Source of the DNA: a virus
Strand: one strand, 5' to 3'
DNA: 64,000 nt
IMG/VR virus record: IMGVR_UViG_3300023440_000001
Span: 1-64,000 of that record
Part shown: positions 45,724 through 63,741 of the stretch, one piece after another
Layout of the letters: every line of letters begins with the position of its first letter
How positions within the stretch are numbered: the first letter of the stretch is position 1
Made by a program: the position numbers and the translations under genes
The notes under the pieces: generated by a model
Told to the model about the DNA's origin: nothing
Database searches by the model: none
Seen by the model: only the letters and a program-made list of their open reading frames with translations

Positions 45724-46590
45724 ATGAAAAAGCGCCCTATAGTTCTGAGTATAAGCAACCAAAAGGGTGGAGTTGGGAAGACCACAACCGTATGCGCACT
45801 GGCGGAGACCTTTGCCCATAAGGGTTTTCGTGTTGGAGTGATCGATACGGATCCCCAATCTAATACTACCAGCATACTGGGTAAACCCCCTTATTCACAG
45901 GCCGAAAACATCATTGCCGTCCTGGATCCGGAGTTTGATCGACCTATCTCTGCCCTGTTTGTAGAGTCTCCGAAGATTAAGAACCTCTATCTCCTACCCT
46001 CTTCCATAAAGGCGGCTGGAATGTGGCCCGGTCTGTATGGACGTCTGAACGAATATATGATTAATATATACAGTTTATTGGCCAGGTACCTTTCGCAAGA
46101 TGCAACAATCAATGAGGACTTTGATGTCATAATAATAGATACACCACCCTCACTGGATCTGCCCATGATTAACGCACTGTCTTCCTCTGACTACGTAATA
46201 ATCCCCGTGCAGTCCGGAGACCCCTTCTCCCTAGACGGGTGGTCCGAGCTTTATCTCACCATTCAGAAGGTAAAGAAGAACACCAACGAGCGACTGGAGA
46301 TCCTGGGTATCCTGATTACCTATCACGATCCCAGATTTAACGTATGCAAATCCAACTACAGCTATATCCATGATCGTTTTCGTAGAGAAGGTATTCGGGT
46401 CTTTAATACCTACATCAGTGCTTCAGTGGAAGTCAAACTGTCTCACGTGACGAGAAAACCCATCACCATCTTTAATAAGAGTCATAAAGTCAGCGAACAG
46501 TACCGCGAGCTGACAGATGAAATCATTCAAATCCTAGGAGGTCAAATTGGCAAGGAAGAAACCAAAGAAGTCGAAGAGGCCAACAGTTGA
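45724..46590 (+). CDS. parA: ParA-family partition ATPase
   Basis: 288 aa. A deviant Walker A (KGGVGKTTT, residues 14-22), a switch I (DTDPQSNTT) and a Walker B (VIIIDTPPSLDLP) are clear. It lacks an N-terminal HTH, as in type Ib ParAs. It segregates plasmid copies by dynamic binding to nucleoid DNA with a ParB-type partner. Downstream overlap (44 nt) with the next gene and the nearby iteron origin support a plasmid maintenance module. SD is AGGAGG. Confidence 0.92.
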   Translation: MKKRPIVLSISNQKGGVGKTTTVCALAETFAHKGFRVGVIDTDPQSNTTSILGKPPYSQAENIIAVLDPEFDRPISALFVESPKIKNLYLLPSSIKAAGMWPGLYGRLNEYMINIYSLLARYLSQDATINEDFDVIIIDTPPSLDLPMINALSSSDYVIIPVQSGDPFSLDGWSELYLTIQKVKKNTNERLEILGILITYHDPRFNVCKSNYSYIHDRFRREGIRVFNTYISASVEVKLSHVTRKPITIFNKSHKVSEQYRELTDEIIQILGGQIGKEETKEVEEANS

Positions 46591-47443
46591 CGACATCAAT
46601 CAAATGTGGGGTGTTAGTGATGAGATACGCTCCGATGGTGATGTACTGGATGAATTCCCTGGCTTCGTAAAGAATAGTGTACAAAAAGACACGTACCCAC
46701 AGGATACAGGAGACGTACCTGGTACATACGACATACCACGTACGCCAGACGTACCCGATACTACCGACGTATTGCATACAGGAGACGTACCCGATACAAA
46801 AGACGTACTACATACTCCTGATGTATCCAATACACCTGACGTGCCAGGTACATCAGATGTGCCACATACGACTGGTGTGCCGGATACAGATAGTGTACGC
46901 CGACCGTCAGACGTACCCAGAAAGTACGTCAGACGTACCTCCTCACTGGACAAATATCAATGGAGCATCGATGTATATCGTCGCTGCATTCCAGATCAGA
47001 AGTCCAGAATCAAGCGCCTCTTGTTAAGGGGTATAGGTAAGTTCGTACCAAACAAACGATCTATGTTAACCCGTCGGCTATTCTCGACCATGGTTTTCGA
47101 TGAACTGTCTGATTTATTAAAAGGCAACTGGAAGATGAAGCGGGATATACCTTACTACAGGAAGGTGTGGAAAAGCCTACAGCGCGAAGGATATCTATCC
47201 TTAATCGATATGAGATTAGATGGACCACTCCATGAGCGTGGTTCGATATTTAAGGTCAAGTTTCCTTTATGGGTCGATACAAACAAAGACGTGAAGAAAG
47301 TCAGCACCAGACGCCTGATACTGGATTGTATATTGTGTACAGAATACCTAAAAGACGGCGATCTATCGGTCTTGCCTTACTTTGATATGGTTCAAAAAGA
47401 GTTGAAGAAGCGAAAGATAGATACAGAACCATTATGTTCCTAA
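46547..47443 (+). CDS. ParA partner with hexapeptide repeats (candidate centromere-binding protein)
   Basis: 298 aa from TTG at 46547 (AGGAGG 5 nt upstream), overlapping parA. Residues ~48-125 are a tandem array of about 13 hexapeptides of the form x-D-V-P-x-T, coded by near-identical 18-bp DNA units. The C-terminal ~170 residues look like a winged-helix DNA-binding domain (KRLLLRGIGKFVPNKRSML, then WKSLQREGYLSLIDM). It takes the place of parB; the repeats may extend the protein or the repeat DNA may itself be the parS site. No CTPase motifs of canonical ParB are seen. Confidence 0.5.
   Translation: MARKKPKKSKRPTVDDINQMWGVSDEIRSDGDVLDEFPGFVKNSVQKDTYPQDTGDVPGTYDIPRTPDVPDTTDVLHTGDVPDTKDVLHTPDVSNTPDVPGTSDVPHTTGVPDTDSVRRPSDVPRKYVRRTSSLDKYQWSIDVYRRCIPDQKSRIKRLLLRGIGKFVPNKRSMLTRRLFSTMVFDELSDLLKGNWKMKRDIPYYRKVWKSLQREGYLSLIDMRLDGPLHERGSIFKVKFPLWVDTNKDVKKVSTRRLILDCILCTEYLKDGDLSVLPYFDMVQKELKKRKIDTEPLCS
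46694..46935 (+). repeat. 18-bp coding tandem repeat array
   Basis: About 13 units of an 18-bp sequence related to GACGTACCNGATACNNNN within the preceding gene, giving the x-D-V-P-x-T peptide repeat. Units differ mostly at third and linker positions. Candidate centromere site. Confidence 0.7.
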
Positions 47444-47556
47444 AGGGTCGCTTACTGGTTCTCAAGGGGTCGTTAAGATGTTCCTAAAGGGTCGCTTAAT
47501 TGTACCCAACTGGTCGTCAGCTGACCAACTATTTGCTATTTTGCTTGACTAATTGG

Positions 47557-47571
47557 TATCCATATTAGATA
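47557..47571. promoter_or_regulatory. Switch-type palindrome copy in origin core (1)
   Basis: TATCCATATTAGATA, one mismatch from the central 15 bp of the palindrome at 43441-43459. Confidence 0.5.
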
Positions 47572-47615
47572 TTAATCGCTCTTTTGTATATAGGCTTATT
47601 GATTATGGCTAAATC

Positions 47616-47633
47616 ATTATCCATATTGGACAA
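47616..47633. promoter_or_regulatory. Switch-type palindrome copy in origin core (2)
   Basis: ATTATCCATATTGGACAA, identical to the palindrome at 43441-43459 over the first 15 bases, placed 3 bp before the inverted iteron array. Confidence 0.55.
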
Positions 47634-47876
47634 AGTTAAGCGACCCTTTAGGTACGTTCAAACGACCCTTTAGGTACCTGCATGCGATACCCTGGGTACC
47701 ACTAAGCGACCCTTTAGGTACGTAGTCAATTGGAAGTATAAGAATCGTAAGTATTATAATAGCATTGGTTATATATATGGACGTTTCTTTTGCACATAGA
47801 ATCGTTATGCTCTAATCAATAAATGAATATATACTACTTAGTTATACTTGATTAATTAGTTAATTGGAATTTCAAT

Positions 47877-49358
47877 ATGAAAGACAACAAACAACTGATC
47901 GCACCGGATATCGTATCCTTTACCCACTATCCATTTGGGTTCTTGAAGACACCCGAGAATCGTCCCCATCATATTATTGATATTCGTGGGCGTATTACCT
48001 ATGATGGAAAGGTAAACGAATATCGCTGGGTTGTTAAGGGAGATAAAGTTGCCGGACTCCCGGTTGGTTCTGAAAATGACCTGGAAGCATTCGTCCATAT
48101 TGAGCAAGCCCGCAGTGCCAGCACCGATAGTTTCGAAGTCAGCAAACAGCACATACTCCACCAACTTGGCTATCCAAATAACGGAAAGTACCATCTCATC
48201 ATTAACAATGCTATTACCAAGTTTCGAAAACTGAACATAACCGCATTCAACTGTCTGATGGATCCTAAACGGGGTAAGTTCTATAAGGCACTGACTTTCC
48301 CATTCTTTGATTCAGTTGGCATTCTGGGCCGTGGAGATGCTGTCAACGAGATCGATATGAGCATTGATGCCGAGCAGGTACTGGAGCAACTGTCTTCCAT
48401 GCGGCACGTTGCCTTTGTCTTTACCCTATCAAAGCCACTTCGAAGGCTGTTGGATTCTTCAAACGCCATCCCGCTGGATTGGGATATCTATGTAAGTCTG
48501 CCCGAGATTAAAAGCCGCATGTTATACCGTACTGTGAATAAGTTGAGTCATTTTAACATTGACTATATTGAACTTCGGGAAATGGGGAAGCTGCTTTCTT
48601 TGGCCTTTTATCGTAACTCTCGTATTCGAGCATCGCTGGAGAAACCCCTGGACGTACTGAAACAGGCTGGTGTCATTCATGACTATCGATTTACCGAAGA
48701 CAATGGTATCCATTTTAAGTTTAACCCCATTCGGACACAGGTTAAATCCAGCGACAGTACCCGTAAGCACCCACTTTATGAATATCTTGTCAACAAAACC
48801 AATGTGAATCCGCGCTCGGCTCGAGACTGCGTGGAGAGCTTATATTGGCGTGAGGAAGACAAAAGATGGGTCATTCGTTTCTATGAATCTCATAAGAAAC
48901 AACGTGGCTGGAATGACGGGATGCTGGTATTACTACTGAAGGGAGACCAGGAAAAGGTAAAGGATGAACTTCTGGAAGCTCGTCAATGGATCGATCAGAT
49001 GAAAGCGCAGACCAAATCAAAGGAAAGTGAACAGGAAGCCCGGGAGTATTCGAACAAACTTGATGAAATGCTGGTCAAAGCAGTTACTGAGCTTACAGAA
49101 GATGAGCTGAAAGCCCTCTACGAGTGGTCTGTTGAGAATCTTGATAACTTCAGTGTCGAACACCTGAGAAAGAATATGGCTGCAGTAAACAGTGTTCGAG
49201 AGTTGCTCGCATCACCCATCTGCAAAGGATACTTCATAAAGGCATTTCAGGAAGTATATCCGGAAAGGTTCAGAGAGATGCAAAACGCAGCCAGGAATGG
49301 CAAACGAAAGGGTAGGGAAGTGGTCAGAAATGCTATACAGCGTTCCTTATTCGAATAA
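47877..49358 (+). CDS. Plasmid-type replication initiator protein
   Basis: 493 aa. Located directly after the iteron array. Motifs near residue 145 (GKFYKALTFPFFDSVGI) and repeated winged-helix-like segments (residues ~150-300, with SLPEIKSRMLYRTVNKLSHF) resemble plasmid initiators of the RepA/RPA and Rep_3 type, which bind iterons and open the AT-rich core. The C-terminus is a charged coiled region. The ATG has no SD, suggesting low or autoregulated expression. Family identity is probable. Confidence 0.7.
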   Translation: MKDNKQLIAPDIVSFTHYPFGFLKTPENRPHHIIDIRGRITYDGKVNEYRWVVKGDKVAGLPVGSENDLEAFVHIEQARSASTDSFEVSKQHILHQLGYPNNGKYHLIINNAITKFRKLNITAFNCLMDPKRGKFYKALTFPFFDSVGILGRGDAVNEIDMSIDAEQVLEQLSSMRHVAFVFTLSKPLRRLLDSSNAIPLDWDIYVSLPEIKSRMLYRTVNKLSHFNIDYIELREMGKLLSLAFYRNSRIRASLEKPLDVLKQAGVIHDYRFTEDNGIHFKFNPIRTQVKSSDSTRKHPLYEYLVNKTNVNPRSARDCVESLYWREEDKRWVIRFYESHKKQRGWNDGMLVLLLKGDQEKVKDELLEARQWIDQMKAQTKSKESEQEAREYSNKLDEMLVKAVTELTEDELKALYEWSVENLDNFSVEHLRKNMAAVNSVRELLASPICKGYFIKAFQEVYPERFREMQNAARNGKRKGREVVRNAIQRSLFE

Positions 49359-58095: not shown

Positions 58096-58124
58096 CCGAT
58101 AGCCATTCAGGTTGTCGGAGTTTT
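58096..58124 (+). terminator. Terminator after the RNA-polymerase-like gene
   Basis: CCGATAGCC-ATTCA-GGTTGTCGG, 9 bp with two G·U pairs, followed by AGTTTT. It lies before the next gene's start at 58148, which supports that start over an upstream in-frame ATG. Confidence 0.7.
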
Positions 58125-58147
58125 CTGTTAGAAAAGAGGTAAAGACA

Positions 58148-59203
58148 ATGTTAGAAGCCCTCAAATCCTGGTGGGTCATCGTCCAGAACACAGGAAAGTG
58201 CTTTGGATGTGCCTACTGTATCATTTCACAACGAAAGGATTTAGGTGGGATGTATGCAGAGGTGGCTATCGGTGACTTGCCATCGAAGTATCTGGGTGAT
58301 CGTGGACGTGACATCCCCGTGGTTATTGATAACTACTTCGGGGATCCGTCCACACAACAGGATCACCTGAGACAGGCCCTGATGGCCTTAAAAGAAGACG
58401 GCCATCGTGGACCTATTGGCATCATCACAAAAGGGAAGTTCGGCCGACAGACGATTGATCTGTTGGCCAGCATTCCCAATGTGGTGGTGCTGCAGTCCAT
58501 ATCGGGACTGCCTAGAAGCATAGAACCCGCAAAACTGGAGACGCGTGTCGAGAATATGCGTCGTCTGGTGGAGGCAGGGATTAAGACTATCGCTTACCTG
58601 CGACCAATTATCGCAGGGTATAATGATAGCCCAGAATCCCTGCAACGGGTTCTGAATCTAATTAAGCTCACCGGAGTCGATACCGTTGTGTACTCCGGCT
58701 TCCGGATAACAGAAGAGACCCGGAAACTGATGGAAGCCAACGGTATTGACATGTCTGGTTTCAAGGAAGATCCGGAACACAAACAGATGCCGGAAGAGGC
58801 TCGTGAATTCATCGAGACTTACGGACACTCAATCGGATTGAAGGTGTTCCGGAAGACTTCCTGCGGGGTTAGCTATCTGTTGGGCACGTCAGACTATAAT
58901 GCCCACTGGAGTAATCCCACAAAGTACGAGTGCCAGAACTGCCCAAATCTCGGCAAATGTTTGCCGAAGTTAAAGTCAGTGGCAGTCCGGGAATCCGTAT
59001 GCAAACCCAAATGTCCACACCAATGTTCCAGTTGCCCATTCTTGAAGGACAACCAGGTACATCTGACTGGTAAATGGACCCTGGGTGAGTTATCAGTAGC
59101 CCGGTGGATACTTGGTCAGCAGGTAACGGCTGGGGAGATTATTAACACGCCGGGTATACTGAATGTTGAAAAGCTCCGCAACTTAAAGAAGGAGGTGAAA
59201 TAA
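58148..59203 (+). CDS. Radical-SAM-like protein with atypical Cys motif
   Basis: 351 aa from the ATG at 58148. The N-terminal C-x2-C-x2-C (KCFGCAYC) is one residue short of the usual C-x3-C-x2-C. The middle reads as a TIM-barrel (IGIITKGKFG, VVVLQSISGL, IAYLRPIIAGYND). The C-terminal part has a second cluster with eight or more Cys (CQNCPNLGKC, CKPKCPHQCSSC), likely extra Fe-S centres. It is followed directly by a second radical-SAM gene. Function is unknown: DNA repair of the SPL type, base modification or peptide modification are all possible. Confidence 0.6.
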   Translation: MLEALKSWWVIVQNTGKCFGCAYCIISQRKDLGGMYAEVAIGDLPSKYLGDRGRDIPVVIDNYFGDPSTQQDHLRQALMALKEDGHRGPIGIITKGKFGRQTIDLLASIPNVVVLQSISGLPRSIEPAKLETRVENMRRLVEAGIKTIAYLRPIIAGYNDSPESLQRVLNLIKLTGVDTVVYSGFRITEETRKLMEANGIDMSGFKEDPEHKQMPEEAREFIETYGHSIGLKVFRKTSCGVSYLLGTSDYNAHWSNPTKYECQNCPNLGKCLPKLKSVAVRESVCKPKCPHQCSSCPFLKDNQVHLTGKWTLGELSVARWILGQQVTAGEIINTPGILNVEKLRNLKKEVK

Positions 59204-60141
59204 TGAAGACCTTCTTTAAGCCCAGTGGAGCTGCATGTCCACAAGGCTGTGCGTATTGCATTGTGGACATGAATCCCAACCGCCGGAAGGAGTATCTGGA
59301 GTCAGTTCTGTACTTCATGAACTCCTTCGTGGCGATAAACATCATGCCTGAACGGAGGGACCAACATCTTGAAGAGATTCGAAACCTCGATTGGTCCCTC
59401 TTTTCGGGTGACTATCTGGGATTCCAGGGTGCATCAGAACCATTAATGTACAAACGTACCCTGTTTGATATCCTGGGCAAGGCCAGGCAATTCGGCTTCA
59501 AGGTAGCGATTTGTTCCAAGCTATCCATCGGCCGAAGATTGGCAAAAGAGCTGGCCGAGTTTCGGGATGTCTTGGACATTGAGATTTCATATGCCAAGCT
59601 CTCGGAACTGGAAAGGTCGGACGCCAAACGCCTGGCATCGATAGGAAATGCCCTGGAAGCTGGTTTCGACGTGCTGACAGTCATTCAGCCGTTTATATAC
59701 GGTTTGACGGATGTCAGACTCGAAGAGCTGATCCGGGAGCTGAAGAGCGTGGGAGCCACCTACGTCTCTGTGAATGGCTTCCGATATTCCAAGGCAATGG
59801 AATGGTGGGCCAGGCAGGTACTTCCACATCACATACTCCAGATGTATAGGGAGAATGAGGGTGTGGAATACCTGCCTGATCGGGGTCAGATAGAAGCCCG
59901 ACTAACAGCGGCCGGGTTCAAGGTAACCAAGATCTCTAAATGGTTACGAAGGAATGAATCCGGACGCTACAAGGACCCTGCCGAGGTGATTTCGAATATG
60001 AAACGTCTGGTTGGATTTAAAAGTCAAATAGACCCTTCTAATCCTGATTGGAGGGTCTGCGATAACGAACATCTTCGCGTAGCAAGCGATAGCAATAGTG
60101 AGATGCTTGCAAAGATGTTCGAAAGGAGAATGAACTTCTAA
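59203..60141 (+). CDS. Radical SAM enzyme
   Basis: 312 aa. Canonical C-x3-C-x2-C at the N-terminus (CPQGCAYC) followed by a barrel (SGDYLGFQGASEPLMYK, VAICSKLSIGRR, VLTVIQPFIYG). It has no second Cys cluster, so it may form a heteromer or a substrate-relay pair with the preceding protein, whose stop it overlaps. Both together in a phage arm with no obvious cofactor pathway is unusual. Confidence 0.7.
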   Translation: MKTFFKPSGAACPQGCAYCIVDMNPNRRKEYLESVLYFMNSFVAINIMPERRDQHLEEIRNLDWSLFSGDYLGFQGASEPLMYKRTLFDILGKARQFGFKVAICSKLSIGRRLAKELAEFRDVLDIEISYAKLSELERSDAKRLASIGNALEAGFDVLTVIQPFIYGLTDVRLEELIRELKSVGATYVSVNGFRYSKAMEWWARQVLPHHILQMYRENEGVEYLPDRGQIEARLTAAGFKVTKISKWLRRNESGRYKDPAEVISNMKRLVGFKSQIDPSNPDWRVCDNEHLRVASDSNSEMLAKMFERRMNF

Positions 60142-60941: not shown

Positions 60942-60990
60942 TGCCCCGCCTCGCTATCAGGCGACACCGGCTCGCGACCGAGCGGGGCGC
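60942..60990 (+). ncRNA. Compact three-stem RNA element, copy A
   Basis: Outer stem GCCCCGC/GCGGGGC (60943-60949 with 60982-60988), inner TCGC-TATCAG-GCGA and a CGG/CCG stem round TCGCG. Shares sequence and fold with 63693-63741, with compensatory changes in two stems. Confidence 0.65.
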
Positions 60991-61100: not shown

Positions 61101-61190
61101 ACTGCCCCTAGGTTGGGGTCAGTCGGCAATGGGCACTGTGGCACCACGCCGGGCATGTCGCCGAAGTGGTGTCCAGCCATGGAGGAGTAT
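61101..61190 (+). other. Hairpins upstream of the Csx3-like gene
   Basis: GACTG-CCCC-TAGGTT-GGGG-T-CAGTC (61101-61125) and CACCAC...GTGGTG (near 61143-61170) with an inner GGC/GCC stem. They lie just before the ribosome binding site of the gene at 61194. Confidence 0.5.
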
Positions 61191-61193
61191 ACC

Positions 61194-61520
61194 ATGGCTA
61201 TCTATAATATGGAATTGAGTCAAACTTCAATGTCCGCCCCGAACGGTGGACCTGTATTCTTATTAAAGGTCGGGTTCGGCGACCCGGCAACCAACGCCGA
61301 GATCGTTCCGTTCGTCGCCGAAAACGCTCCCGACGCAAACGGCGCAGTACTGTTAATTAACGGGCCCGCCAGCCTTCCGGTGGCAATGGCGCTGGCTCAC
61401 AAATACGCTCATGTATTCGGGGCCGTGGCGGCCTTCGACCCGAAGTTATCCGGGTACGTAGTCGCCATTAGCCACGATCCCGAGTTACCGGTCGGCAAAG
61501 TGCTGAAGTTCGATATGTAA
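61194..61520 (+). CDS. Csx3/Crn3-like protein (probable cyclic-oligoadenylate ring nuclease)
   Basis: 108 aa from the ATG at 61194, chosen since GGAGG lies 8 nt upstream; an upstream start adds a non-conserved extension. The C-terminal half follows the Csx3 signature of type III CRISPR accessories: (G)AVLLINGPASLPVAMALAHKY, then AVAAFDPKL and VVAISH. H69, H73, D82 and H94 are candidate active residues. Csx3 family proteins degrade the cA4 second messenger made by type III CRISPR complexes. No CRISPR-cas genes are nearby, so in a phage this would act as an anti-CRISPR. Typical length is about 100 aa. Confidence 0.8.
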   Translation: MAIYNMELSQTSMSAPNGGPVFLLKVGFGDPATNAEIVPFVAENAPDANGAVLLINGPASLPVAMALAHKYAHVFGAVAAFDPKLSGYVVAISHDPELPVGKVLKFDM

Positions 61521-61600
61521 TATGCCGACCGGCGACCTGGGCATGTCGTTAAACTGCCCCGTCGACCGGGCGACGTAAAATAGGCCTTAGGCCCGGTGCG

Positions 61601-61618
61601 GCTCCGCTTCGGCGGAGC
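61601..61618 (+). other. UUCG-capped hairpin before the next small gene
   Basis: GCTCCGC-TTCG-GCGGAGC, 7 bp perfect, 27 nt upstream of the ATG at 61645. Likely leader or processing hairpin. Confidence 0.6.
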
Positions 61619-61644
61619 GTGGTAACCAAACAACAGAGGTGACC

Positions 61645-63692: not shown

Positions 63693-63741
63693 TGCCCCAC
63701 TTCGTTATCAGGCGACGCTGGTTCGCGACCAGGTGGGGCAC
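63693..63741 (+). ncRNA. Compact three-stem RNA element, copy B
   Basis: Outer stem GCCCCAC/GTGGGGC (63694-63700 with 63733-63739), inner TCGT-TATCAG-GCGA, and CTGGT-TCGCG-ACCAG. Matches copy A with paired substitutions. It lies 32 nt before the start of the last gene of the window. Confidence 0.65.

What the first reader, a model, noticed from the sequence alone, without database searches (positions are those of the whole stretch)
61194..61520. Phage-encoded Csx3-like ring nuclease: a candidate type III anti-CRISPR
The residues LAHKY, then DPKL at the expected distance and VVAISH are the signature of Csx3, previously known mostly from type III CRISPR loci. Here it stands among small phage genes with no cas gene or CRISPR array in the window. 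It would break down cA4 and so disarm type III effectors, analogous to AcrIII-1 but of another family.
Basis: partly seen in the sequence, partly recalled or inferred. Interest (0 to 1): 0.88.

Follow-up and report, generated by a model that had tools for sequence, protein, structure and literature searches.

The report
Phage-encoded Csx3/Crn3 ring nuclease homologue
A large bacterial virus carries its own copy of an enzyme that bacteria normally use to switch off a CRISPR alarm signal, and at least eight other environmental viruses carry one too, so viruses probably use it to silence that alarm.

Summary
Window 61194-61520 (+) encodes a 108-aa Csx3 protein: Pfam Cas_csx3 30.7 bits (cut-off 21), PADLOC Csx3 E 5e-13. 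An AlphaFold2 model (pLDDT 94.9) has A. fulgidus Csx3/Crn3 as its top PDB hits (TM up to 0.82). The gene sits in a 136-kb tailed phage with terminase, portal, capsid and sheath genes. No RAMP cas gene or CRISPR array was found in the record.

Eight more viral contigs encode intact Csx3: three of this subfamily and five of the A. fulgidus type, three of which were scored and all exceed NCBI's Crn3 equivalog cut-off. None tested has RAMP genes. In three related myoviruses csx3 sits in the same slot. In an unrelated phage it lies 119 bp from an AcrIII-1-type gene. Phage copies keep the conserved His/Asp residues. No Csx3 matched in 50,697 phage records, and a 2025 survey listed none in 28,114 phages.

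Best reading: a viral ring nuclease that degrades cA4 and blunts type III CRISPR. Activity is inferred. This subfamily has K for the catalytic R71, has not been assayed as far as I found, and also occurs in Patescibacteria without RAMP genes. The host is unknown.

Novelty: new variant of a known kind (viral ring nucleases).

The parts
61194..61520 (+). csx3 gene, 108 aa, stand-alone Csx3/Crn3-like protein
   Evidence: PF09620 above gathering score; PADLOC Csx3 5e-13; AF2 model pLDDT 94.9; Foldseek top 10 = AfCsx3, best TM 0.75/0.82 with 3wzh_A
61181..61187 (+). GGAGGAG ribosome-binding site, 6 nt before the ATG
   Evidence: sequence
61398..61412 (+). codons H69 to H73 (HKYAH): H69 equals AF1864 H57; H73 equals H60 or H61
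   Evidence: alignments
61437..61445 (+). codons D82-P83-K84: D82 equals AF1864 catalytic D69; K84 at the place of R71
   Evidence: alignments
61473..61475 (+). codon H94, equals AF1864 H80
   Evidence: alignments
61560..61624 (+). Pistol self-cleaving ribozyme (RF02679) 39 nt after the csx3 stop; would cut the csx3 transcript downstream of the coding region
   Evidence: Rfam 62.5 bits, gathering 34.5, full length

Best explanation
The gene is a phage-owned Csx3/Crn3-type ring nuclease. Made during infection, its dimers would sandwich cyclic tetra-adenylate (cA4) between head-to-tail faces and hydrolyse it, draining the signal that type III CRISPR (Cas10) makes on sensing phage RNA, so that cA4-dependent effectors stay off. 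Shown here: family, fold, phage genome, absence of RAMP cas genes and arrays, conserved active-site residues, recurrence in unrelated phages. Inferred: that it cuts cA4, that the host has a type III system, and that the phage gains from it.
For: Family and fold. Phage context: terminase, portal, major head and tail sheath genes; about 70 ORFs shared with a second phage contig, G007, with conserved genes on both sides of the csx3 island. No RAMP genes in the record, no arrays. Recurrence: intact csx3 in viral contigs G001 and G004 in the same slot between a ~900-aa protein and SSB, a supported phage clade 98/94; in G002, otherwise unrelated; beside an integrase in a Nostoc chromosome (L012); and AF1864-type copies in five more viral contigs without RAMPs, three scored and above the Crn3 equivalog cut-off, two with terminase beside csx3 or in the same locus. 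G002 csx3 is followed after 119 bp by an AcrIII-1-family gene with the conserved GHxxTA motif; AcrIII-1 is in only 36 of 28,114 phages (PMC12409355). H69, H73, D82, K84 and H94 are kept in all four phage copies of this subfamily, while the AAA-fused paralogues often lose the histidines. Csx3 from M. mazei partly relieves type III immunity when expressed in E. coli (PMC7371418).
Against: No enzyme assay. R71 (reported absolutely conserved; R71A strongly impaired) is K84, R46 is P58, and the second His is 4 rather than 3 residues from the first (PMC7371418); these traits are shared by Nostoc type III-linked Csx3, and I found no report of cA4 cleavage by that subfamily. Deleting the Synechocystis csx3-AAA gene slr7080 did not affect interference against a plasmid (PMC9676260). 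Csx3 is in 10 of 380 sampled Patescibacteria genomes; the six checked have no RAMP genes. The host is unknown, so a type III system in it is not shown.
Confidence: 0.68

Rival explanations
1. cA4 sponge: the protein binds cA4 tightly but hydrolyses it slowly or not at all, and still blocks type III signalling by sequestration.
For: K in place of R71 and P in place of R46, both cA4 contacts in AfCsx3; a catalytically dead AfCsx3 (H60A) still binds cA4 into fibres (PMC7371418). A slow ring nuclease that is a good cA4 sponge exists: Csx15 (PMC13148439).
Against: The conserved His and Asp residues are kept in every phage copy of the subfamily, which a pure sponge would not need. PMC13148439 argues that sponging may be fruitless against the large amounts of signal that type III systems make.
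Confidence: 0.15
2. CRISPR-independent role: the phage and Patescibacteria branch of Csx3 acts on another nucleotide signal or on RNA 3' ends (the old deadenylase activity), unrelated to type III CRISPR.
For: Patescibacteria Csx3 in genomes without RAMP genes, some next to a Csx3-type kinase. AfCsx3 was first described as an RNA deadenylase (PMC7371418).
Against: AfCsx3 binds poly-A RNA about 100-fold more weakly than cA4 (PMC7371418). Most cellular relatives found lie with type III genes. An AcrIII-1-family gene sits beside csx3 in G002. No kinase partner gene was found in the own phage.
Confidence: 0.14
3. CRISPR accessory: the gene belongs to a type III locus just outside the window or carried by the phage.
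For: In Nostoc the same kind of gene lies inside type III loci.
Against: The rest of the record was read: no RAMP genes, no similarity to type III cas proteins, no CRISPR array. The record is not shown to be complete, so a locus beyond its ends is not strictly excluded.
Confidence: 0.02
4. Assembly chimera or host fragment: csx3 is not part of the phage genome.
For: csx3 has no counterpart in the nearest relative G007.
Against: Genes on both flanks (about 51.7 and 66.5 kb) match G007 in the same order, and the more distant relatives G001 and G004 have csx3 in the equivalent slot.
Confidence: 0.01

Closest known systems
Csx3/Crn3 ring nuclease (AF1864, M. mazei Csx3; PF09620, TIGR02579)
   Same: Fold (TM up to 0.82), conserved positions H57, D69, H80 and a second His, small stand-alone protein.
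   Different: R46 to P, R71 to K, one extra residue between the two His, an insertion near the N-terminus; encoded by a phage without RAMP cas genes; below the NCBI equivalog cut-off.
Stand-alone Csx3 of Nostocales type III loci
   Same: About 42-50% identity over the aligned part, same HxxxH, DPKL and (S/T)H residues.
   Different: Those lie beside cas10/RAMP and Csx3-AAA genes; the phage has neither.
AcrIII-1 (DUF1874, PF08960) viral ring nuclease
   Same: Expected role: viral destruction of cA4; the two families are neighbours in phage G002.
   Different: Unrelated fold; AcrIII-1 is metal-independent, Crn3 needs Mn2+ (PMC7371418).
Other phage-borne ring nucleases: Crn4b, Csx16, Csx20, viral SAVED protein
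   Same: Ring nuclease families or activities found in phages (PMC12409355, PMC12830947, PMC12751052).
   Different: Different families; Crn3 was not among those listed in the phage survey.

Membership tests
Csx3 (PF09620) | Score above Pfam gathering threshold | tested here: met
   30.7 against 21 bits
Csx3 (PF09620) | AfCsx3 fold | tested here: met
   AF2 pLDDT 94.9; top 10 Foldseek hits AfCsx3
Crn3 ring nuclease (TIGR02579 equivalog) | Score above NCBI equivalog cut-off 55.4 | tested here: not met
   28.9 bits. Nostoc type III-linked Csx3 score 25.8 and 25.4. Therefore filed as a Csx3-family protein of a divergent subfamily, not as a Crn3 equivalog
Crn3 ring nuclease | H57, D69, H80 | tested here: met
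   H69, D82, H94
Crn3 ring nuclease | H60 | tested here: inconclusive
   Gapless from H57 the place is A72; counted back from D69 it is H73. H73 is conserved in all phage copies of the subfamily
Crn3 ring nuclease | R71 (bidentate to phosphate) | tested here: not met
   K84; K also in nearly all cyanobacterial relatives aligned
Crn3 ring nuclease | Mn2+-dependent cA4 cleavage in a head-to-tail tetramer | not testable with these tools
   no assay; only a monomer could be modelled
Type III CRISPR accessory | Neighbouring type III cas genes | tested here: not met
   no RAMPs in the record; no similarity to type III cas proteins
Anti-CRISPR (type III) | Encoded by a mobile element without its own CRISPR | tested here: met
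Anti-CRISPR (type III) | Inhibits immunity of a host | not testable with these tools
   host unknown; no assay
AcrIII-1 (PF08960) | DUF1874 domain in this phage | tested here: not met
   no PF08960 match in G000

The most novel reading that the evidence does not exclude
Csx3 proteins of phages and Patescibacteria form a branch working outside type III CRISPR, degrading or sensing a different cyclic oligonucleotide; the phage copy would then reveal a signalling defence not yet described.
Probability: 0.12. Interest if true: 0.85.

Novelty: new variant of a known kind. Interest (0 to 1): 0.6.

Why it matters
Some ring nuclease families have been found in viruses (AcrIII-1, some Crn4, Csx16, Csx20, a SAVED protein); Crn3 was not among those listed in a survey of 28,114 phages. 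Nine environmental viral contigs with intact csx3, from several unrelated phages and two subfamilies, would move Crn3 into the viral set. Three of the A. fulgidus-type copies pass the Crn3 equivalog cut-off, so cA4 cleavage and anti-type III activity can be tested at once. The phage lineage also gives a test of whether ring nucleases pass between host and virus in both directions.

Tried and rejected
Searching with the window protein alone found no viral relative; alignments were needed. tblastn of five Csx3 variants against 50,697 phage records found nothing credible. The G004 DUF1874 protein was first taken as a second AcrIII-1 but has GY where AcrIII-1 has the conserved GH, so it is not counted. 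The csx3 in G005 is a ~30-residue remnant, not counted as intact. A link between the ~900-aa proteins upstream of csx3 in G000 and G004 is not established (only G001 and G007 are clearly homologous). No sigma-70 promoter was found near csx3. The host could not be found: closest annotated phage is Moorella phage MTATph1 at only 31-34% in terminase and portal.

Full report
What is there. ORF 61194-61520 (+) encodes 108 aa with a good ribosome-binding site. Pfam Cas_csx3 scores 30.7 bits against a cut-off of 21; PADLOC Csx3 models give 5e-13. NCBI's stricter TIGR02579 gives 28.9 bits, below its cut-off of 55.4, but Csx3 proteins sitting inside Nostoc type III loci score 25.8 and 25.4 with the same model, so this is a divergent subfamily rather than a poor match. 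AlphaFold2 with 36 aligned relatives gives pLDDT 94.9; the ten best PDB matches are all A. fulgidus Csx3, including cA4-bound chains, best TM 0.75/0.82. No viral predicted structure in BFVD matches at E 0.001.

Active site. By alignment, AF1864 H57, D69 and H80 are H69, D82 and H94 here. The second His is ambiguous: gapless from H57 it falls on A72, counted back from D69 it is H73. R71 is K84 and R46 is P58. H69, H73, D82, K84 and H94 are identical in all four phage copies of this subfamily and in the stand-alone Nostocales ones aligned, while Csx3 domains fused to a kinase often lose the histidines.

Genome. The window is 1-64000 of a 136,294-base viral record. Terminase, portal, major head and tail sheath genes mark a contractile-tailed phage. 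The record has no RAMP genes, no tblastn similarity to Nostoc type III cas proteins beyond chance and no CRISPR array. The closest annotated phage is Moorella phage MTATph1, 31-34% in terminase and portal. A viral contig of 188.7 kb (G007) shares about 70 ORFs; it has genes matching both flanks of the csx3 island but no csx3.

Recurrence. Alignment-based scans of IMG/VR found csx3 in G001 (154 kb), G004 (155.5 kb) and G002 (154 kb), plus a remnant in G005. G001 and G004 share about 20 genes with the own phage and have csx3 between a ~900-aa protein and SSB, as here. Csx3 of these three forms a clade with 98/94 support, apart from G002; it is more similar among them (54-56% to the own copy) than are the portal or terminase (27-33%), which suggests strong constraint or transfer. 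G002 shares only csx3 with the own phage. Its csx3 is followed after 119 bp by an AcrIII-1-family gene with the GHESTA motif (PDB AFV3-109, 1.9e-9). AcrIII-1 is present in 36 of 28,114 phages (PMC12409355), so this pairing is unlikely by chance, with the caution that the collections differ and one case is one case. In Nostoc sp. FACHB-110 csx3 lies next to an integrase without cas genes within 10 kb, and genes around it match G002 and G005; a Nostoc plasmid with a terminase gene carries another. A further scan with A. fulgidus-type sequences found csx3 in five more viral contigs, none with RAMPs, with terminase beside csx3 in L129 and in the same locus in L132. All five keep H57, H60, D69, R71 and H80 (read from the sequences); L128, L129 and L132 score 112, 115 and 76 bits with TIGR02579, above the cut-off. 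G004 was not tested for RAMP genes over its whole record, only within 10 kb of csx3 by tblastn.

Mechanism. Csx3 dimers sandwich cA4 and cut it with Mn2+; M. mazei Csx3 partly relieves type III immunity in E. coli (PMC7371418). A phage expressing it would lower cA4. This is inference: no assay exists for this subfamily that I found, the host is unknown, and R71 is replaced.

The main complication. Csx3 is in 10 of 380 sampled Patescibacteria genomes; six were checked and have no RAMP genes, and some have the Csx3-type kinase as a neighbour. G002's Csx3 groups near them. Csx3 can therefore exist without type III CRISPR, and a different role in that branch is possible. These genomes are small and their completeness was not given.

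Novelty. No Csx3 matched in 50,697 phage records with five query variants. The 2025 ring nuclease survey lists AcrIII-1, Csx20 and Csx16 in phages, not Crn3, although it searched with Crn3 models; later papers read do not add it. Only open-licence papers could be searched, so an unseen report is possible. Viral ring nucleases as such are known, hence a new variant of a known kind.

Noticed in passing
window 61560-61624: Pistol self-cleaving ribozyme 39 nt after the csx3 stop (Rfam RF02679, 62.5 bits).
   Followed up: partly
window 60955-60979 and 63706-63730: Two copies of TATCAGGCGACNNNGGNTCGCGACC inside GC-rich hairpins, none expected by chance; no Rfam family; the second copy folds well (z -3.5).
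   Followed up: partly
window 45724-47877: ParA gene and two sets of direct repeats at 22-base spacing before a 493-aa ORF of unknown family: possible plasmid-like replication or partition region.
   Followed up: no
window 58112-60141: Two adjacent radical SAM-like genes upstream of csx3; G004 has one radical SAM gene in the like position.
   Followed up: partly
L003 4025-4148: Rfam tRNA match spanning 124 nt, longer than a normal tRNA; ARAGORN did not call it.
   Followed up: no
L056 11369-12085: HD_4 gene downstream of csx3 and the AcrIII-1-type gene in G002, 49% identical to an HD gene next to Nostoc type III loci; possibly another counter-defence gene.
   Followed up: partly
L119 (G004 82916-83194): PF08960 protein lacking the conserved GH of AcrIII-1, in a phage that also has csx3.
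   Followed up: partly
L010, L121-L124: Patescibacteria genomes with Csx3, some beside a Csx3-type kinase, and no RAMP genes.
   Followed up: partly
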